From Micromonospora chaiyaphumensis (lineage in GTDB: Bacteria > Actinomycetota > Actinomycetes > Mycobacteriales > Micromonosporaceae): DNA of 64,000 nucleotides. Below are positions 56,070 to 64,000 of the stretch, one piece after another (within the stretch, counting starts at the first letter, position 1; every line of letters starts with the position of its first letter). Under the pieces are notes generated by a model. It did no database searches, was not told where the DNA came from, and saw only the letters and a list, made by a program, of their open reading frames with translations. The position numbers were made by a program, and so were the translations under genes. The stretch covers positions 62,001 through 126,000 of the forward strand of contig NZ_FMCS01000001.1 in the NCBI RefSeq assembly GCF_900091435.1, written 5' to 3'.

Positions 56070-57476
56070 TCAGTCGTCGCGGTGGGCGCTCCACCAGGCC
56101 TGACCGGCCTCCGGCAGGGTGTCGATCGGGTCGTAGTAGGCGTAGCGCTTGTTGAGCGCTTCGAGGTCGGCGGACTCGATCGACGTGCGGTAGTTCTTGG
56201 TCCAGTACGAGATGCCGCGTTCACGGTCGTACTCGGTGAGCATGTGCACCCAGCGCTTGCCGACGAACGGGACGTCACAGACGATCCGCGGGGTCGCGTA
56301 GCCGGGCAGGTAGCCCATGATGTCGTGCTGGAGCTGCTGGGCGTGCCACACGGGGACCCGCCAGTGCTCGGCGTTGGGGATCATGTCGCACATGTAGAAG
56401 TAGTACGGCAGGATGCCCGCCTCGCCCTGGAGGGCGAAGCAGAGGTCGAGCAGGTCGGCGCTGGTGGCGTTGACGCCGCGCATGAGCACGCCCTGGTTGC
56501 GGACGTCGCGGACGCCGACGTCGAGGGCGGTCTGGGCGGCCTTGGCGACCAGCGGGGTGATCGACTGCCGGTGGTTGACGTGCGTGTGGATGGCCAGGTT
56601 GACGCCGCGGCGGGCGGCGGTGCGGGCGACCCGTTCGAGGCCCTCGACGACGTCGGCCTGGAGCCAGTGCTGGGGCAGGCCCATGAGGGCCTTGGTGGCG
56701 AGGCGGATGTCGCGGATGGTCTCGATCTCGAGCAGCCGCATGAGGTAGGACTCGAGGTTCTTCCACGGCACGTTGGCCACGTCGCCGCCGGAGACGACCA
56801 CGTCGCGGACGCCCGGGTGGGCCTTGAGGTAGGCGATGTGGGCGTCGTAGCGGTCGACGGGCTTGAGGGTGAGCTTGAGCTTGTCGACGGCGGGGGTGGA
56901 GTTGCCGACGAGATCCATCCGGGTGCAGTGCCCGCAGTACTGCGGGCAGGTGGAGAGCAGCTCGGCGAGGACCTTGGTGGGGTAGCGGTGGGTGAGGCCT
57001 TCGGCGACCCACATGTCGTGCTCGTGGAGGCTGTCGCGGCTGGCGTAGGGGTGCGAGGGCCAGTCGGTGCGCCGGTCGGAGGCGACGGGGATCATGTAGC
57101 GGCGGATCGGGTCGGCGAGGAACGCCTCGGTGCTCATGGGCTCGAACGGCACCATGGTGTTGAGCATCTGCGGCGGCACCAGCATCGACATGGTGGCCAG
57201 GGCCTTCTGGTCGGCCTCGAGGTCGGCGTAGAAGGTCTCGTCGACGAGGTCGCCGAGGACGGTGCGCAGCTGCTTGATGTTCTTGACGCAGTTGACCCGC
57301 TGCCACTGGGCGTTCTCCCACTGCTCGCGGGTGACGTGGCGCCAGCCGGGGAAGCGGGTCCAGTCGGGTTCGACCAGGGGGCTGCGGCGGTATTCGTACG
57401 GCTGCCCGGCGGTCGGTACGGCGACCGGGGCGTGACGGGGTTGAGGGATGGTCTCAACCGGTTGGGTCTGGGTCAC
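56070..57476 (-). CDS. kamA: Lysine 2,3-aminomutase (radical SAM)
   Basis: This 468-residue protein is KamA-like. The radical-SAM cluster is C177-P-Q-Y-C181-G-H-C184, followed by T-R-M-D-L-V-G; G-G-D and later barrel strands of the family are present. The enzyme uses a 4Fe-4S cluster, SAM and PLP to shift the amino group of L-lysine from C2 to C3, giving beta-lysine. The usual Arg after the second cysteine is Gly here, as far as I recall a feature of an actinobacterial branch. The GTG has AGGAGG at ideal spacing. It is divergent from the other lysine-degradation genes across a 143-base region. Confidence 0.88.
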   Translation of the reverse strand: MTQTQPVETIPQPRHAPVAVPTAGQPYEYRRSPLVEPDWTRFPGWRHVTREQWENAQWQRVNCVKNIKQLRTVLGDLVDETFYADLEADQKALATMSMLVPPQMLNTMVPFEPMSTEAFLADPIRRYMIPVASDRRTDWPSHPYASRDSLHEHDMWVAEGLTHRYPTKVLAELLSTCPQYCGHCTRMDLVGNSTPAVDKLKLTLKPVDRYDAHIAYLKAHPGVRDVVVSGGDVANVPWKNLESYLMRLLEIETIRDIRLATKALMGLPQHWLQADVVEGLERVARTAARRGVNLAIHTHVNHRQSITPLVAKAAQTALDVGVRDVRNQGVLMRGVNATSADLLDLCFALQGEAGILPYYFYMCDMIPNAEHWRVPVWHAQQLQHDIMGYLPGYATPRIVCDVPFVGKRWVHMLTEYDRERGISYWTKNYRTSIESADLEALNKRYAYYDPIDTLPEAGQAWWSAHRDD

Positions 57477-57524
57477 GGCCCCTCCTGACTGTGGTGCGGG
57501 TGATCAGCGATCCCGAAGGCTACT

Positions 57525-57566
57525 GGAAAATATCCGGTGAAGAAATTAGTCTGCCGGAAGTTTTCC
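57525..57566. promoter_or_regulatory. Long imperfect palindrome in the divergent kam promoter region
   Basis: GGAAAATATCCGG (57525-57537) and CCGGAAGTTTTCC (57554-57566) are inverted copies with two mismatches in thirteen, separated by sixteen AT-rich bases. It is centred between kamA and kdd, so one regulator could control both arms. The regulator is not in the window. Confidence 0.6.
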
Positions 57567-57619
57567 CGCGACGCGAGCCCTGACCGGGGTTTCGGGCGGC
57601 TGGACATTGGGGGGTCGGC

Positions 57620-58681
57620 GTGACGTCACCGGTGGGTCTGCACCGAGTCGTGGAACCGGCGGGGGTGCTGCCGCAGGCGGCGTGGCGGCTGGACGCCGAC
57701 CCGCGGATCGCCGCGAACGAGGTGCGGATCCGGGTCGAGCGGCTGAACCTGGACGCGGCGAGCTTCCGGCAGCTGTCGGAGAAGCACGGCGGCGACGGGG
57801 AGAAGGTCCGCGCCGAGGTGCTGGAGATCATCTCGATCCGGGGGAAGATGCAGAACCCGGTCACCGGCTCCGGCGGCATGCTGATCGGCACGGTGGACGA
57901 GGCCGGGAAGCGGTCCCCGCTGGGCCTGCGGCCGGGCGACCGGGTGGCCACCCTGGTGTCGTTGACGCTGACCCCGCTGACGATCCTCGACGGGCTGGCC
58001 CGCTGGGACGGGCGCAGCGAGCAGGTTCCCTGCGACGGGTACGCGATCCTGTTCGCCCGGTCGATCGCCGCGGTCCTGCCGGCCGACCTGCACCCGGAGC
58101 TGTCGCTGGCCGTGCTGGACGTGTGCGGCGCGCCCGCGCTGACCGCGCGCGTGGTGGCCGAGCAGGTGGCGCGGCGCCGCCGCGAGGAGGACCCGCGCCC
58201 GGTGACGGTGGCGGTGATCGGCGGGGCCGGCAAGAGCGGTTCGCTGTCGCTGGCTGCGGCGCGGCGGGCGGGTGCCGGCCGTACCGTCGGGGTGGTGCCC
58301 GTGGCCGGGGAGCGCGCCGCCCTCGAAGCGGCCGGCCTGGCCGACGTGGTGGCGCTGGCCGACGCCCGCGACCCGGTGGGCCTGTCCACGGCGGTGACCA
58401 CGGCGCTGGGCGCCCCCGCCGACGTGACGGTGGTCTGCGTGGACGTGCCGGGCTGCGAGCACGGGGCGGTCCTGGCCACCGAGGACGGCGGCACGGTGAT
58501 CTTCTTCTCGATGGCGACGAGCTTCGCGGCGGCGGCGCTGGGCGCGGAGGGCCTGGCCGCGGATGTGACCATGCTGGTGGGCAACGGGTACGTGCCGGGT
58601 CACGCCGAGCTGGCGCTGGACCTGCTGCGCGGCGAGCCGGGGGTGCGTCGTCTGTTCGAGGCCCGCCTGGCGGCAGACTGA
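57620..58681 (+). CDS. kdd: L-erythro-3,5-diaminohexanoate dehydrogenase
   Basis: This 353-residue protein matches the Kdd family by its N-terminal part (G-V-L-P-Q-A-A-W-R-L-D, V-R-I-R-V-E-R-L-N-L-D-A-A-S-F) and its Rossmann loop V-A-V-I-G-G-A-G-K-S-G-S-L-S. Kdd oxidises 3,5-diaminohexanoate to 3-keto-5-aminohexanoate with NAD. It is the first gene of the plus-strand arm. GTG 57620 has a G-rich site upstream. Context with kamA and kamDE confirms it. Confidence 0.9.
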   Translation: MTSPVGLHRVVEPAGVLPQAAWRLDADPRIAANEVRIRVERLNLDAASFRQLSEKHGGDGEKVRAEVLEIISIRGKMQNPVTGSGGMLIGTVDEAGKRSPLGLRPGDRVATLVSLTLTPLTILDGLARWDGRSEQVPCDGYAILFARSIAAVLPADLHPELSLAVLDVCGAPALTARVVAEQVARRRREEDPRPVTVAVIGGAGKSGSLSLAAARRAGAGRTVGVVPVAGERAALEAAGLADVVALADARDPVGLSTAVTTALGAPADVTVVCVDVPGCEHGAVLATEDGGTVIFFSMATSFAAAALGAEGLAADVTMLVGNGYVPGHAELALDLLRGEPGVRRLFEARLAAD

Positions 58682-58686
58682 GCATC

Positions 58687-60258
58687 ATGACGAACCCCTC
58701 GACCTTGTACCGCGGCGGAGTGCTGCACTGTCCGGCCGACCCGAGCGCGACGGCGTTGCTGGTGCGTGACGGGCGGATCGCCTGGTTGGGCGCCGACGGC
58801 GACGCGCCGGCCGCCGACCGGGTGGTGGAGCTGGGCGGGGCGCTGGTGACGCCGGCGTTCGTGGACGCGCACGTGCACGCCACGGACACGGGGTTGGCGC
58901 TGTCGGGGCTGGACCTGTCGGCGGTGCGGTCGGCGTCCGGGCTGCTGGAGGCGGTGGCCGCGTTCGCGGCCGGCTTGCCGGGTGACGCGGTGGTGCTGGG
59001 GCACGGCTGGGACGAGTCGTTCTGGGCGGAGCCGGTGCTGCCGGACGCGGCGGCGCTGGACCGGGCGGCGGGGGGCCGCAAGGTGTACCTGTCGCAGGCG
59101 TCGATCCATTCGGCGCTGGTGTCGGCGGCGCTGCTGGCGGCGTGCCCGGATGCGGCGGCGGCGGCCGGTTTCGACCCTTCGGGTTGGCTGCGGCGCGACG
59201 CGCACCATGTGGTGCGGGCGGCGGCGTTCGCGTCGGTGACGCGGGCGCAGCGGGTGGCGGCGCAGCGGCGGGCCCTGGCGCACGCGGCGTCGCTGGGTAT
59301 CGCGGCGGTGCACGAGTGCGGCGGTCCGGACATCTCCGACGAGGAGGACTTCACCGGGCTGCTGGCGATCTCGGGTGCCGGGGTGCCGGAGGTGTACGGG
59401 TACTGGGGTGAGCTGCTGGGCGCGGCGCGGGCGCGGGAGCTGGGCGCGGTGGGCGCCGGGGGTGACCTGTTCGCCGACGGGGCGCTGGGTTCGCGGACGG
59501 CGCACGTGTCGGCGGCGTACCTGGACGGGGAGCCGGGGGCGTGCGGGCACGGGTACGTGACGGCGGAGCAGGTGCGTGACCATCTGCTGGACTGCTCGGC
59601 GCACGGGTTGCAGGGCGGTTTCCACGCGATCGGGGACGCGGCGATCGGCACGGTGCTGGAGGGGTTCGCGCAGGCCGCGCAGAAGGTGGGCGTGGACCGG
59701 TTGCGGGCGGCCCGGCACCGGGTGGAGCACGCGGAGATCATGAGCAAGCGGTTGATCGCCGGGTTCGTGGAGTACGGGATCGTGGCGTCGATGCAGCCGG
59801 CGTTCGACCGGTTGTGGGGCGGGGCGGGCCGGATGTACGAGTCGCGGCTGGGGCTGTCCCGGTCGTTGGAGTCGAACCCGATGGGCGCCATGCACGGGGT
59901 GGGTGTGGCGCTGGCGTTCGGGTCGGATTCGCCGGTGACGCCGCTGGACCCGTGGGGGTCGGTGCGGGCGGCGGCGGCGCACCACAACCCGGTGCAGCGG
60001 ATGAGTGTGCGGGCGGCGTTCGCGGCGCACACCCGGGGCGGGTGGCGGGCGGTGCACCTGGACAACGAGGGGGTCCTGGCGTTGGGGGCGCCGGCGACGT
60101 TCGCGGTGTGGGAGACCCCGGCCGGGGTGGAGCGGGGGCTGCCGGTGTTGCAGGCCGAGGACCCGGAGGCGCGCGGCGCGGAGGATCCGACGCCGCTGCC
60201 GGTGTGCCGGGCCACGGTGCTGCGCGGTGACGTGATCTATCAGGAAGGCGTTTCGTGA
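58687..60258 (+). CDS. YtcJ-like amidohydrolase embedded in the lysine-degradation operon
   Basis: This 523-residue protein is an amidohydrolase-3/YtcJ-type enzyme: metal ligands in F-V-D-A-H-V-H-A-T-D, D-G-A-L-G-S-R-T-A as in the family, F-H-A-I-G-D-A-A-I and F-G-S-D-S-P-V-T-P-L-D-P. No signal peptide is seen. It lies five bases after kdd and overlaps kamD as GTGA, so it is a built-in part of this operon, although no amide-hydrolysis step belongs to the known lysine fermentation pathway. It might open a lactam formed from an intermediate or release lysine or beta-lysine from an amide; both are guesses. Confidence 0.85.
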   Translation: MTNPSTLYRGGVLHCPADPSATALLVRDGRIAWLGADGDAPAADRVVELGGALVTPAFVDAHVHATDTGLALSGLDLSAVRSASGLLEAVAAFAAGLPGDAVVLGHGWDESFWAEPVLPDAAALDRAAGGRKVYLSQASIHSALVSAALLAACPDAAAAAGFDPSGWLRRDAHHVVRAAAFASVTRAQRVAAQRRALAHAASLGIAAVHECGGPDISDEEDFTGLLAISGAGVPEVYGYWGELLGAARARELGAVGAGGDLFADGALGSRTAHVSAAYLDGEPGACGHGYVTAEQVRDHLLDCSAHGLQGGFHAIGDAAIGTVLEGFAQAAQKVGVDRLRAARHRVEHAEIMSKRLIAGFVEYGIVASMQPAFDRLWGGAGRMYESRLGLSRSLESNPMGAMHGVGVALAFGSDSPVTPLDPWGSVRAAAAHHNPVQRMSVRAAFAAHTRGGWRAVHLDNEGVLALGAPATFAVWETPAGVERGLPVLQAEDPEARGAEDPTPLPVCRATVLRGDVIYQEGVS

Positions 60259-61814
60259 GCGGCAAGCTTGGGTTGGATCCGGCGCTGGTGGCGCGGGCGC
60301 GGGAGTTGGCGCGCCGGGCCGGGCAGCCGGTGGTGGATCTGGCGCGCAGCCACACCACGGTGTCGGTGGAGCGGGCGGTGCTGCGGCTGGCCGGGGTGAC
60401 CGGCGCCGACCCGGACGGGATCCCGTGGGTGAACCGTCTCGTGGACGCGGTGGTGGCCGATGTCGGTCTGGGCCACGGGGTGGCGGCGCCGGTGTTCGAC
60501 GCTCTCGCGCGGGAGCAGATCGGCGACGTGACGTTGCTGGCGCAGAAGGCCGCCGCCGGGTCGGTGCGGTTCACCCAGCCGACCGGCAAGGCCGCCACGG
60601 CGGCCCGGCGGGCGGCCCGCAAGGCGGTCGCCGCGGGGGTGCGGCAGATCGACCGGCGGCGGGCCGAGCGGGACCGCCTGGTGAAGCGGTACGGGGATCC
60701 GGAGCAGCGGCCGTGGATCTACCTGATCGTGGCGACCGGTGACATCTACGAGGACATCCCGCAGGCGCAGGCCGCGGCGCGGGCCGGGGCGGACATCATC
60801 GCGGTGATCCGCTCGACGGGGCAGTCGCTGCTGGACTACGTGCCCGAGGGCGCCACCCGGGAGGGTTTCGCCGGCACGTACGCGACGCAGGAGAACTTCC
60901 GGTTGATGCGGGCGGCGCTGGACGAGTCGTCGCGGGAGCTGGGCCGGTACGTGCGGTTGACGAACTACGCGTCGGGTCTGTGCATGCCGGAGATGGCCAC
61001 CCTGGCGGGCCTGGAGCGGCTGGACATGATGCTCAACGACTCGATGTACGGGATCCTGTTCCGGGACATCAACCCGATCCGCACGTTCGTGGACCAGCGG
61101 TTCTCCCGGCAGGTGCACGCCCGCGCCGGGATCATCATCAACACCGGTGAGGACAACTACCTGACCACCGCCGACGCGGTGGACGAGGCGCACACGGTGA
61201 CGGTGTCGCAGCTGCTCAACGAGTATTTCGCGCACGAGGCGGGGCTGGCGGACTGGCAGCTCGGGCTGGGGCACGCGTTCGAGATCAACCCGGACCTGCC
61301 GGAGTCGTTCCGGCTGGAGCTGGCGCACGCGCTGCTGGCGCGGGAGTTGTTCCCCGACGCGCCGTTGAAGTGGATGCCGCCGACGAAGCACATGACCGGT
61401 GACGTGTTCCGCGGCAACCTGCTCGACGGGTTCTTCAACCTGGTGGGCACCATGACGGGGCAGGGCATCCTGCTGGTGGGGATGATGACCGAGGCGGTGG
61501 TCACCCCGTGGCTGTCGGACCGGGACATCGCCCTGCAGAACGTGCGGTACGTGCTGGGCGCGGCGGGCGGGCTGCACGAGGACTTCGTGCCGGCGCCGGG
61601 CGGGTTCATCCAGCAGCGCGCCCACCGGGTGCTCGGGGAGGCCGTGGATCTGCTGGAGCGCATCGGTGACCAGTCGCTGCTGACGGCGATCGCCGAGGGC
61701 ACGTTCGGGATCATGAAGCGGCCCGCGGACCGGGGCAAGGGCCTCGACGGTGTCGCGAGGCACGAGGCCGACTACTACAACCCGGCCACGGACATCCTGG
61801 AGCAGGCGGCATGA
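60255..61814 (+). CDS. kamD: Beta-lysine/D-lysine 5,6-aminomutase alpha subunit
   Basis: This 519-residue protein is the large subunit of the adenosylcobalamin- and PLP-dependent aminomutase (Y-L-I-V-A-T-G-D-I-Y-E-D-I-P-Q-A, Q-S-L-L-D-Y-V-P-E-G-A-T, L-T-N-Y-A-S-G-L-C-M-P-E-M, K-W-M-P-P-T-K-H-M-T-G-D). It holds most of the substrate barrel. The reaction turns beta-lysine into 3,5-diaminohexanoate. It overlaps the amidohydrolase gene (GTGA) and kamE (ATGA). Confidence 0.93.
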   Translation: MSGKLGLDPALVARARELARRAGQPVVDLARSHTTVSVERAVLRLAGVTGADPDGIPWVNRLVDAVVADVGLGHGVAAPVFDALAREQIGDVTLLAQKAAAGSVRFTQPTGKAATAARRAARKAVAAGVRQIDRRRAERDRLVKRYGDPEQRPWIYLIVATGDIYEDIPQAQAAARAGADIIAVIRSTGQSLLDYVPEGATREGFAGTYATQENFRLMRAALDESSRELGRYVRLTNYASGLCMPEMATLAGLERLDMMLNDSMYGILFRDINPIRTFVDQRFSRQVHARAGIIINTGEDNYLTTADAVDEAHTVTVSQLLNEYFAHEAGLADWQLGLGHAFEINPDLPESFRLELAHALLARELFPDAPLKWMPPTKHMTGDVFRGNLLDGFFNLVGTMTGQGILLVGMMTEAVVTPWLSDRDIALQNVRYVLGAAGGLHEDFVPAPGGFIQQRAHRVLGEAVDLLERIGDQSLLTAIAEGTFGIMKRPADRGKGLDGVARHEADYYNPATDILEQAA

Positions 61815-62563
61815 CGGAGAAGAAGATCGTCCGGCCGTACGGGGACACGACCGGCGACGGCATGGTGCAGGTGTCGTTCACGCTGCCGGTGCCGCACGAC
61901 AAGCGCGCCGAGGGCGCCGCGGTGCAGCTGGCGAACAAGATGGGCATGGACCCGGCGATGCTGGTGCACGCCAAGCAGATGGGCGACGGGTTCACCTTCT
62001 TCGTGGTCTACGGGCGGGTGAACCACCTCGTGGACCTGGACAAGGTGCAGGTGGTGGAACGGGACTTCCCGCTGCTGTCGGCCAAGGAGGTGAACACGGT
62101 GGTGAAGCAGCGGCTGCGGCGCAAGCTGTCCGTGGTGGGCGCCTGCATCGGCACCGACGCGCACACCGTGGGCATCGACGCGATCCTCAACGTCAAGGGC
62201 ATCGCGGGGGAGAAGGGCCTGGAGTACTACCGGGAGCTGAAGGTCACCAACCTGGGCGCGCAGGTCAGCGTGCCCGAGCTGGTCGAGGCGGCCCGGCAGG
62301 AGAAGGCCGACGCCGTGCTCGTCTCCCAGGTCGTGACGCAGCGCGACGCGCACCTGCACAACACCCGGGAGATGTCCGCGGCGTTCCGGGAGGCCCTGCC
62401 CGCGGGCAAGCGGCCCCTGCTGATCGTCGGCGGTCCCCGCTTCGACGAGACCATGACCGGGGAGCTGGGCGTCGACCGGATCTTCGGCCGCGGCACCACC
62501 CCCGGCGAGGTCGCCAGCTACCTGGTCCACGCCCTCATCACGGACAAGAAGGCGAGAGCATGA
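61811..62563 (+). CDS. kamE: Beta-lysine/D-lysine 5,6-aminomutase beta subunit
   Basis: The 250-residue small subunit carries the B12-binding motif D116-A-H118-T-V-G121, where His118 is the lower cobalt ligand. Lys129 in N-V-K-G is the likely PLP Schiff-base lysine. The C-terminal Rossmann part ends with R-I-F-G-R-G-T-T-P. ATGA overlaps on both sides couple it to kamD and kal. Confidence 0.93.
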   Translation: MTEKKIVRPYGDTTGDGMVQVSFTLPVPHDKRAEGAAVQLANKMGMDPAMLVHAKQMGDGFTFFVVYGRVNHLVDLDKVQVVERDFPLLSAKEVNTVVKQRLRRKLSVVGACIGTDAHTVGIDAILNVKGIAGEKGLEYYRELKVTNLGAQVSVPELVEAARQEKADAVLVSQVVTQRDAHLHNTREMSAAFREALPAGKRPLLIVGGPRFDETMTGELGVDRIFGRGTTPGEVASYLVHALITDKKARA

Positions 62564-62952
62564 GCGATCCCCGGGTCGGCCTGACCGTCACCCACCGCCG
62601 GTACGTGCCGTACTCCCACGCCCACTACGCGGGCAACCTCGTCGACGGGGCGTACGCGCTGGGGTTGTTCGGGGACGTCGCCACCGAGGTGTGCATCCGC
62701 ACCGACGGCGACGAGGGGCTGTTCGCCTCCTACTCCGACGTGCAGTTCAAGGCGCCCATGAAGGCCGGTGACGTGCTCGAGGTGATCGCCACCGTCACCC
62801 GGGTCGGCACCCGCAGCCGCACCATCGACTTCGCCGCCCGGGTGGTGTGCCGGGGCCGCCCCGACAAGTCGGAGTCGGCCGCCGAGGTCCTCGCCGAGCC
62901 GATCGTGGCGGTCACCGCGACCGGCACGGTGGTCGTCCCCCCAGCGGCGTGA
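62560..62952 (+). CDS. kal: 3-aminobutyryl-CoA ammonia lyase (hotdog fold)
   Basis: This 130-residue protein has a hotdog thioesterase-like fold (H-R-R-Y-V-P-Y-S-H-A-H-Y-A-G-N-L-V-D-G-A, F-K-A-P-M-K-A-G-D-V-L-E-V). By context and start it is Kal, which eliminates ammonia from 3-aminobutyryl-CoA to give crotonyl-CoA. Its ATG overlaps kamE. The gap before the next gene (62953-63010) holds a GAAGGAAGG ribosome-binding site and no gene. Confidence 0.87.
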   Translation: MSDPRVGLTVTHRRYVPYSHAHYAGNLVDGAYALGLFGDVATEVCIRTDGDEGLFASYSDVQFKAPMKAGDVLEVIATVTRVGTRSRTIDFAARVVCRGRPDKSESAAEVLAEPIVAVTATGTVVVPPAA

Positions 62953-63010
62953 GCGCGAGGAGCGAGCCGGGGTTGCGAGTTCCGAAGTCGCGAAGGAAGG
63001 ACAGCTCCGG

Positions 63011-64000
63011 GTGAACCTCGCCGTCTGCGCCGACGTCGGGTCGACGTACACCAAGGCGGCGGTGGTCGACCTCGACGGCGGCCGGCTCGTCGCGGCGGCG
63101 GCCGCGCCGACGACCGTGGGCACGGACGTGCTGCACGGCCTGGACGCCGCGGTCGGCGCCGCCACCGCCGGGCTCACCGCCGGTGACCTGCCCTGGTACG
63201 TCTGCTCGTCGGCCGGCGGTGGCCTGCGCCTGGCCGTCGTCGGCTACGAGCCCCTCGTCACCGCGCAGGCCGGCCGGCGCGTCGGGTTGTCCGCCGGGGC
63301 GAACGTGGTGCACGTGGCCGCCGGGCGGCTCGGTCAGGCCGACCTGACCGCGCTGCGCGCCGCCCGCCCCGACGTGGTGCTGCTCGTCGGCGGCACCGAC
63401 GGCGGCGACGCCGACACCCTCACCCACAACGCCACCCGGCTGGCGCGGGCGCGCTGGCGGGTGCCGGTGGTGCTCGCCGGCAACGCCGACGCCCGCGACG
63501 ACCTGCACGCCCTGCTGGCCGCGGCGGCGGTGCCGGTCACGGCCGCCGACAACGTGCTGCCCCGCATCGGGGTGCTCGCGCCCGCGCCGGCGCGCGCCGC
63601 GATCCGGGAGGTGTTCCTGCGGCACGTCATCGGCGGCAAGAAGCTGTCCCGCGGCGGCCGGTTCGCCCGCCTGGTGCGGGCCGCCACCCCCGACGCGGTG
63701 CTCACCGGCGTGGAGGTCCTCGCCGACGCCCTCGGCGGCGATCTGGCCGTCGTCGACGTCGGCGGCGCCACCACCGACGTGTACTCGGTGCTCACCCCGG
63801 ACGAGCGGGACACCGGCCCCAGCCAGGAGGTCGCCGGCACCCTGTGGCGGGCCCGCACCGTCGAGGGGGACCTCGGCATGCGGTGGAGCGCCCCCGGTGT
63901 GGTCCGCGCCGCCGCCGAGGAACGCCTCCTCGCCCCCGGCGAGGCCGACGACCTGGCCGCGGCGGCGGCGGTGCGGGCCGCCGACCCCGGCTTCCTGCCC
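63011..64000 (+). CDS. MutL/GlmL-like reactivating ATPase of B12 aminomutases (3' end outside window)
   Basis: The frame runs off the right edge after 330 residues. It starts with the actin-like ATPase motif C-A-D-V-G-S-T-Y-T-K and later shows V-L-L-V-G-G-T-D-G-G-D and V-V-D-V-G-G-A-T-T-D-V-Y. It resembles GlmL/MutL, the protein next to glutamate mutase and lysine aminomutase genes that is thought to reactivate the damaged cobalamin enzyme. GTG 63011 follows a good ribosome-binding site. Confidence 0.88.
   Translation, partial: MNLAVCADVGSTYTKAAVVDLDGGRLVAAAAAPTTVGTDVLHGLDAAVGAATAGLTAGDLPWYVCSSAGGGLRLAVVGYEPLVTAQAGRRVGLSAGANVVHVAAGRLGQADLTALRAARPDVVLLVGGTDGGDADTLTHNATRLARARWRVPVVLAGNADARDDLHALLAAAAVPVTAADNVLPRIGVLAPAPARAAIREVFLRHVIGGKKLSRGGRFARLVRAATPDAVLTGVEVLADALGGDLAVVDVGGATTDVYSVLTPDERDTGPSQEVAGTLWRARTVEGDLGMRWSAPGVVRAAAEERLLAPGEADDLAAAAAVRAADPGFLP

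What the first reader, a model, noticed from the sequence alone, without database searches (positions are those of the whole stretch)
56070..64000. Complete-looking lysine fermentation-type pathway with an embedded amidohydrolase in an actinomycete
kamA, kdd, kamD, kamE, kal and a reactivating ATPase are all here, overlapping or closely spaced. The amidohydrolase between kdd and kamD is locked in by a GTGA overlap, yet the described route (L-lysine to beta-lysine to 3,5-diaminohexanoate to 3-keto-5-aminohexanoate to 3-aminobutyryl-CoA to crotonyl-CoA) has no hydrolytic amide step. The keto acid cleavage enzyme (kce) and a CoA-transferase are not in the window. The embedded enzyme may open a lactam side product or let the cell feed on beta-lysyl amides such as those in streptothricin-type antibiotics.
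Basis: partly seen in the sequence, partly recalled or inferred. Interest (0 to 1): 0.8.

Follow-up and report, generated by a model that had tools for sequence, protein, structure and literature searches.

The report
Lysine-degradation operon with built-in deacylase
A Micromonospora-like actinomycete carries a gene cluster of the lysine-fermentation type, and the puzzling amidohydrolase inside it is likely an epsilon-lysine acylase, a known enzyme type that would strip acyl groups from modified lysine so that the lysine can be broken down.

Summary
The missing genes are elsewhere in the genome: kce on contig C9, and an acetoacetyl-CoA synthetase on C3 in place of a CoA-transferase. Kce co-occurs with KamD in 54 of 54 kamD+ and 0 of 146 kamD- genomes of the order.

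AH lies beside kamD in 47 of 54 kamD+ genomes but is not confined to the pathway: it is in 125 of 146 kamD- genomes too, and usually sits upstream of lnt-ppm1-rbpA. In one genus the kam operon lies elsewhere and AH is with lnt.

AH belongs to the clade of the Streptomyces epsilon-lysine acylases (EC 3.5.1.17). Five Streptomyces orthologs reproduce the published SgELA residue numbers and mass. AH keeps the metal ligands and, like those enzymes, lacks the carboxylated lysine (Asp260).

Best reading: AH very likely hydrolyses N-epsilon-acyl-lysine to lysine, which feeds KamA. The proposed lactam and beta-lysyl-amide substrates have no support here. That feeding KamA is its main role is an inference: natural cases run the operon with AH absent or unlinked. 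Activity is untested in this organism.

The parts
56070..57476 (-). kamA: lysine 2,3-aminomutase-like radical SAM protein (468 aa), divergent from the operon
   Evidence: TIGR00238 170 bits (cut-off 199), AblA 157 (525); alignment to 2A5H with CxxxCxxC, CTR and both Asp motifs kept; in 52 of 54 kamD+ genomes
57620..58681 (+). kdd: 3,5-diaminohexanoate dehydrogenase (353 aa)
   Evidence: NF052381 265.7 bits, cut-off 200
58687..60258 (+). AH: Amidohydro_3 protein (523 aa), predicted N-epsilon-acyl-lysine deacylase (epsilon-lysine acylase, EC 3.5.1.17)
   Evidence: PF07969 244 bits; H62, H64, H313, H348, D414 and Asp260 in place of the carboxylated Lys; clade with Streptomyces ELA-type orthologs
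60255..61814 (+). [quoted passage not shown] GTGA overlap with AH
   Evidence: NF052384 699.6 bits, cut-off 600; overlap
61811..62563 (+). [quoted passage not shown]
   Evidence: NF052385 355.8 bits, cut-off 280
62560..62952 (+). kal: 3-aminobutyryl-CoA ammonia lyase (130 aa)
   Evidence: NF052388 198 bits, cut-off 160
63011..64000 (+). GlmL/MutL-like ATPase, presumed reactivase of the B12 mutase; continues 345 bases past the window end
   Evidence: PF13941 368 bits; full protein TIGR01319 248.5 bits, cut-off 204; the narrower GlmL and Or-4 models stay under their cut-offs

Best explanation
The amidohydrolase embedded in this lysine-degradation operon is very likely an epsilon-lysine acylase that would remove acyl groups from the side-chain nitrogen of N-epsilon-acyl-lysine and so supply free lysine to KamA. 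SHOWN here by sequence: the operon and its genes; a full gene set in the genome (kce and acetoacetyl-CoA synthetase on other contigs); AH in one clade with Streptomyces proteins that match the published epsilon-lysine acylases in residue numbers and mass and nearly in identities; a kept metal site with Asp where the nearest paralogs have Lys; frequent adjacency to kamD in the order and in a distant family; AH kept in many genomes without the pathway. INFERRED: substrate N-epsilon-acyl-L-lysine (acetyl and perhaps longer), probably from turnover of acylated proteins, since AH shows no export signal by eye. PREDICTED chain: acyl-lysine -> lysine (AH) -> beta-lysine (KamA) -> 3,5-diaminohexanoate (KamDE, kept active by the ATPase) -> 3-keto-5-aminohexanoate (Kdd) -> 3-aminobutyryl-CoA + acetoacetate (Kce) -> crotonyl-CoA (Kal); acetoacetate would re-enter through acetoacetyl-CoA synthetase.
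For: (1) Five Streptomyces orthologs (S. microflavus, S. fimicarius, S. anulatus x2, S. sindenensis; that they belong to the griseus clade is recalled) have, from an ATG start, H76, H78, H177, H330, H365 and D431, the residues printed for SgELA, and 56.8-57.0 kDa against 56.9 for SgELA. (2) Their identity to the S. violaceoruber ortholog, my stand-in for ScELA, is 78.6-79.6% (79.8% printed for SgELA-ScELA); that ortholog is 55.5 kDa (ScELA 55.3) and 79.2-80.7% identical to three species used as stand-ins for SmELA (80.9% printed). (3) A review names the missing carboxylated lysine as what sets epsilon-lysine acylases apart from the other M38 enzymes it compares (PMC11511702, passage). AH-type rows have Asp there in 65 of 67; the four nearest Amidohydro_3 paralogs have Lys (by eye on the printed motif). 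(4) The 19 AH/ELA rows lie on one side of a branch from 12 paralogs in 92% of 200 bootstrap trees; the 15 rows of AH's own class are starred 100/100. (5) AH is beside kamD in 47 of 54 kamD+ genomes of the order (coordinates) and between kdd and kamD in 7 of 7 kamD+ genomes of the distant family f23. (6) Pathway completeness: Kce 54/54 vs 0/146; acetoacetyl-CoA synthetase 830 bits vs cut-off 521.
Against: AH is only 50-54% identical over the alignment to the Streptomyces proteins, so its substrate may differ. It occurs in 125 of 146 kamD- genomes and is often next to lnt/ppm1, so linkage to kam could be inherited gene order. One kamD+ genome (G006) gave no AH at E 1e-30 (7 of its 10 candidates scored), and in five genomes of one genus AH is on a different contig from kamD. 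No alignment column conserved in kam+ AHs is different in kam- AHs. S. griseus DSM 40236 itself and the published accessions were not in hand. The stand-ins for the S. mobaraensis enzyme gave 77.8-80.6% with the five orthologs where the paper prints 75.6%, and a locus labelled S. griseus BIG105 is shifted by two residues. The H177 that the authors call oxyanion-forming is not conserved in my alignment (window Asp163). The f23 AH keeps 135 of 372 ELA-invariant columns, hardly more than the 110-128 of the four nearest paralogs.
Confidence: 0.62

Rival explanations
1. AH is a bystander: a resident of the lnt-ppm1-fxsA-rbpA neighbourhood that works in something else (for instance envelope or lipoprotein metabolism), and kam genes merely flank it by old gene order.
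For: lnt on the same stretch within about 5 kb of AH in 19 of 19 sampled order loci without kamD at that place; lnt and/or ppm1 near AH in 15 of 20 sampled phylum loci; ppm1 and rbpA with AH in 68 of 68 Streptomyces loci with both flanks, none with kam genes. In three of the five genomes of genus g3 the stretch was read: AH is with lnt while kam is on another contig. The kam label changes 13 times on the AH tree, at least 9 by starred branches.
Against: The nearest biochemically known relatives act on acyl-lysine, a substrate that fits the operon; kdd and kamD embrace AH in two distant lineages.
Confidence: 0.22
2. AH deacylates N-epsilon-acyl-beta-lysine, so it feeds the pathway one step later than lysine.
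For: The epsilon-amide would be the same; in 19 kamD- genomes a kamA remains, in several directly beside AH (L135, L144; coordinates of G138 and G144).
Against: No genome of 200 in the order has the beta-lysine N-acetyltransferase AblB above its cut-off; 13 have only weak matches.
Confidence: 0.08
3. One reading: AH opens a lactam formed from 3,5-diaminohexanoate or 5-amino-3-oxohexanoate, or attacks beta-lysyl amides of antibiotics.
For: Position between kdd and kamD; lactam formation is chemically conceivable (general knowledge).
Against: AH is in 125 of 146 genomes with no kamD, where no such lactam would arise by this route; nearest characterised relatives are epsilon-lysine acylases.
Confidence: 0.04

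Closest known systems
Streptomyces epsilon-lysine acylases SgELA, SmELA, ScELA, SamELA (EC 3.5.1.17; M38, YtcJ-like; PMC10699109, PMC11511702)
   Same: Clade, metal ligands, no carboxylated lysine, similar length; as to Streptomyces, judged on orthologs, not on the deposited sequences
   Different: 50-54% identity; in Micromonospora the gene lies inside the kam operon, whereas in 68 Streptomyces loci it lies by ppm1-rbpA with no kam genes
Lysine fermentation pathway and gene clusters (kamA, kdd, kce, kamD, kamE, kal; figure legends and passages of PMC3149608)
   Same: Same enzymes and predicted route to crotonyl-CoA
   Different: kce unlinked, divergent kamA below NCBIfam cut-offs, no CoA-transferase PF01144 in the genome but an acetoacetyl-CoA synthetase; AH embedded
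3icj / 3igh, uncharacterised Pyrococcus metal-dependent hydrolases
   Different: 24-26% identity; they have Lys where AH has Asp (alignments)

Membership tests
epsilon-lysine acylase (EC 3.5.1.17) | Metal ligands of SgELA (H76, H78, H330, H365, D431) | tested here: met
   H62, H64, H313, H348, D414 aligned, invariant in 27 of 27 rows; spacing of the last three identical to the SgELA numbers
epsilon-lysine acylase (EC 3.5.1.17) | No carboxylated lysine | tested here: met
   Asp260 in the window, Asp in 65 of 67 AH rows
epsilon-lysine acylase (EC 3.5.1.17) | Groups with Streptomyces ELA-type proteins apart from other Amidohydro_3 of sampled genomes | tested here: met
   One split, but only 91/52 support over all 19 rows against 12 paralogs; 100/100 for the 15 rows of its class
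epsilon-lysine acylase (EC 3.5.1.17) | His at SgELA position 177 (called oxyanion-forming by the authors) | tested here: inconclusive
   Asp163 in the window; the loop has gaps and the position also varies among Streptomyces orthologs
epsilon-lysine acylase (EC 3.5.1.17) | Hydrolysis of N-epsilon-acyl-L-lysine | not testable with these tools
   Needs the purified protein
lysine fermentation pathway | Kdd, KamD, KamE, Kal | tested here: met
   All four above NCBIfam equivalog cut-offs
lysine fermentation pathway | KamA | tested here: inconclusive
   Below cut-offs of TIGR00238 and TIGR03820; CxxxCxxC and the two Asp motifs align with 2A5H, the C-terminal Lys one column off (residue roles recalled)
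lysine fermentation pathway | Kce | tested here: inconclusive
   NF052387 is the best family but 274 bits under a cut-off of 382; best PDB match 2y7d Kce; present in 54 of 54 kamD+ and 0 of 146 kamD- genomes at E below 1e-100

The most novel reading that the evidence does not exclude
Actinobacteria inherited from a common ancestor a lysine-salvage island in which an N-epsilon-acyl-lysine deacylase feeds a fermentation-type, radical- and B12-dependent lysine pathway in aerobes; the island breaks up by loss of kam genes, and the orphaned deacylase is the industrial epsilon-lysine acylase of Streptomyces, whose natural job is recycling acylated lysine from protein turnover.
Probability: 0.4. Interest if true: 0.7.

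Novelty: new variant of a known kind. Interest (0 to 1): 0.52.

Why it matters
Epsilon-lysine acylases are studied for making surfactants; the passages I saw of two papers on them name no metabolic role. If the link holds, the gene's neighbours supply one: salvage of acylated lysine into a pathway described from anaerobes. It would also give a function to a gene found in 178 of 200 sampled genomes of the order.

Tried and rejected
Lactam or streptothricin substrate: rejected as main reading because AH is kept where kamD is absent and its known kin are epsilon-acylases.

AH as a replacement for Kce: rejected, since each of the 54 kamD+ genomes of the order has a Kce.

AH as an obligate pathway enzyme: rejected. 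G006 has the operon and no AH was found there, and five genomes of one genus have AH on another contig. The AH-kamD association by presence is weak (Fisher p 0.01, not corrected for kinship).

AH specialised for kam operons: no column with one residue in at least 90% of 29 kam+ rows has it in under half of 38 kam- rows (rows labelled by whether kamD lies on the same stretch).

N-epsilon-acetyl-beta-lysine made by AblB: no genome over the cut-off in 200.

CoA-transferase PF01144: none in the genome; acetoacetyl-CoA synthetase found instead.

Piperine amidohydrolase PipM (PMC12753220, passages): subtype VIII by its authors' account, dropped. Metal-dependent bile salt hydrolases (PMC13081902, passages): same Pfam family, but described with the conserved lysine.

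Literature: no paper tying this enzyme type to kam genes was seen in the listings (searches returned nothing; 44 and 71 list 15 of 145 and 10 of 260 papers). Of PMC10699109 I saw the abstract, section 17 and passages; of PMC11511702, PMC13081902, PMC12753220 and PMC3149608 passages only.

My working note says KamA is in 53 of 54 kamD+ genomes and 18 others; the correct counts are 52 and 19.
Full report
WHAT IS THERE. The window belongs to a 6.74 Mb genome in 22 contigs (C14:62001-126000); the nearest proteins to AH, up to 97% identical, are from Micromonospora. kamA lies on the - strand (56070-57476), and kdd, AH, kamD, kamE, kal and a GlmL/MutL-like ATPase on the + strand. AH and kamD share GTGA, kamD/kamE and kamE/kal share ATGA, and kdd is 5 bases before AH. 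Kdd, KamD, KamE and Kal pass NCBIfam equivalog cut-offs; KamA does not, but it aligns along L-lysine 2,3-aminomutase 2A5H with the cluster cysteines and both aspartate motifs kept (the roles of those residues are recalled).

IS THE PATHWAY COMPLETE? Yes at genome level. Kce is on contig C9, its best family is NF052387 though under the cut-off, and its best solved relative is the Kce 2y7d. In 200 genomes of the order, kamD is found in 54 (53 over the family cut-off), and Kce at E below 1e-100 is in those 54 and in none of the other 146 (at most 12 candidates a genome were scored, and weaker BKACE relatives occur in 21 of the 146). In three genomes of genus g3, kce stands next to kamA (L074, L076, L099). 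No CoA-transferase of PF01144 was found, but an acetoacetyl-CoA synthetase well over its cut-off is on C3, which would take up the acetoacetate.

WHERE IS AH? Within 200 bases upstream of kamD (matched stretches) in 47 of the 54 kamD+ genomes of the order (coordinates). Of the other seven, five (genus g3) have AH on another contig, one (G006) gave none at E 1e-30, and one (G008) cannot be judged because the kamD contig ends. In the distant family f23 it is between kdd and kamD in 7 of 7 kamD+ genomes, with 32-37% identity. Other kamD+ genomes of the phylum sample differ: G259 has AH in place, G281 about 1.5 kb upstream, G334 a strongly diverged copy, G381 only a remote relative elsewhere in the stretch, and G233 and G576 (family f44) none.

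AH is in 178 of 200 genomes of the order at E 1e-30, including 125 of 146 without kamD (at most 7 candidates a genome scored), and in 98 of 396 genomes of the phylum at E 1e-50, where kamD passes its cut-off in 15 of 396.

In 19 order loci chosen by me, without kamD at that place, lnt is on the same stretch within about 5 kb of AH in 19 of 19. In 20 phylum loci chosen, lnt and/or ppm1 is near AH in 15 of 20; of the misses, L158 has under 1 kb downstream, L166 and L167 hold kamA upstream instead, and L165 and L168 show none of the genes sought. In 68 of 68 Streptomyces loci with both flanks (12 shorter loci dropped), ppm1 and rbpA are with AH and no kam gene is. In genus g3, AH stands with lnt-ppm1-rbpA and kam on another contig in the three genomes read of five (L136-L138 and L074, L076, L099).

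HOW OLD IS THE LINK? On a tree of 67 AH rows (labelled by kamD on the same stretch) the kamDE label needs 13 changes, at least 9 forced by starred branches, so kam+ and kam- AHs interleave. L083 and L092 are long, doubtful rows there. Distances of KamD, AH and Lnt over 20 kam+ loci that hold all six genes (L083 and L092 left out) correlate: AH-KamD 0.88, AH-Lnt 0.90, KamD-Lnt 0.93, all p 0.001 by 999 permutations. This fits an old island kamA-kdd-AH-kamDE-kal-lnt-ppm1 that loses kam genes piecemeal; 19 kamD- genomes still hold kamA. That is inference; an ancestral AH-lnt pair with kam genes gained on both sides is not excluded.

WHAT DOES AH DO? Passages of PMC10699109 describe SgELA, an epsilon-lysine acylase of Streptomyces griseus, with metal ligands H76, H78, H330, H365 and D431, active on N-epsilon-acetyl-lysine (11.1 U/mg) and on none of the N-alpha-acyl amino acids tested. 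Passages of PMC11511702 add masses, identities and the missing carboxylated lysine. Of 30 Amidohydro_3 loci fetched from three Streptomyces genomes and the own genome, only the AH ortholog of G302 shows the full SgELA spacing with ATG at position 1; the other AH orthologs match loosely, and two further loose matches (L186, L188) look like chance frames by eye.

A scan of named genomes (the best 80 loci kept, more exist) gave Streptomyces orthologs, of which I examined 11 chosen by name. Five have exactly H76, H78, H177, H330, H365, D431 and 56.8-57.0 kDa (SgELA 56.9). Their identity to S. violaceoruber is 78.6-79.6% (printed SgELA-ScELA 79.8%). S. violaceoruber against three species used as stand-ins for S. 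mobaraensis gives 79.2-80.7% (printed ScELA-SmELA 80.9%); the five against those species give 77.8-80.6%, above the 75.6% printed for SgELA-SmELA, so those stand-ins are imperfect. The choice of stand-ins rests on recalled taxonomy. A locus labelled S. griseus BIG105 is shifted by two residues and about 86% identical to the five; it may not be the type species.

VERDICT. AH very likely is an N-epsilon-acyl-lysine deacylase. Supplying the kam pathway is the most economical reason for its place in the operon, but its wide retention elsewhere says it has value without that pathway, and natural cases suggest that the operon can do without it or with it unlinked. The lactam and beta-lysyl-amide ideas are not supported.

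Noticed in passing
L003:5597-9001 (would be window 67597 to 71001, beyond the end): lnt, a ppm1-like glycosyltransferase, fxsA and an RbpA-like gene (the last named by recall, no family hit) follow the kam operon; AH-lnt-ppm1 linkage is common in the phylum without kam genes.
   Followed up: yes
19 kamD- genomes, e.g. L144:10857-12263, L135:3176-4630: kamA is kept (in several beside AH) although kamD is not found; what beta-lysine would serve there is unknown, and no AblB passes its cut-off.
   Followed up: partly
G000:C10:172652-173389: A second BKACE-family stretch with one inner TGA, weakly like Kce (32% identity).
   Followed up: no
L068:7619-9013: In G006, where no AH was found, an open frame that reads like an ATPase (by eye) sits between kamD and kamE.
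   Followed up: no
L097: G334 carries an ornithine 4,5-aminomutase-like locus with a GlmL-like gene (27-38% identity to the window's KamD, KamE and ATPase) as well as its kam operon, whose AH position holds a strongly diverged copy (33% identity).
   Followed up: no
L083:15633-17123: In G381 (family f36) a remote AH-like gene (26%) lies near a kam cluster whose KamA is only 28% identical to the window's; probably not an ortholog.
   Followed up: no
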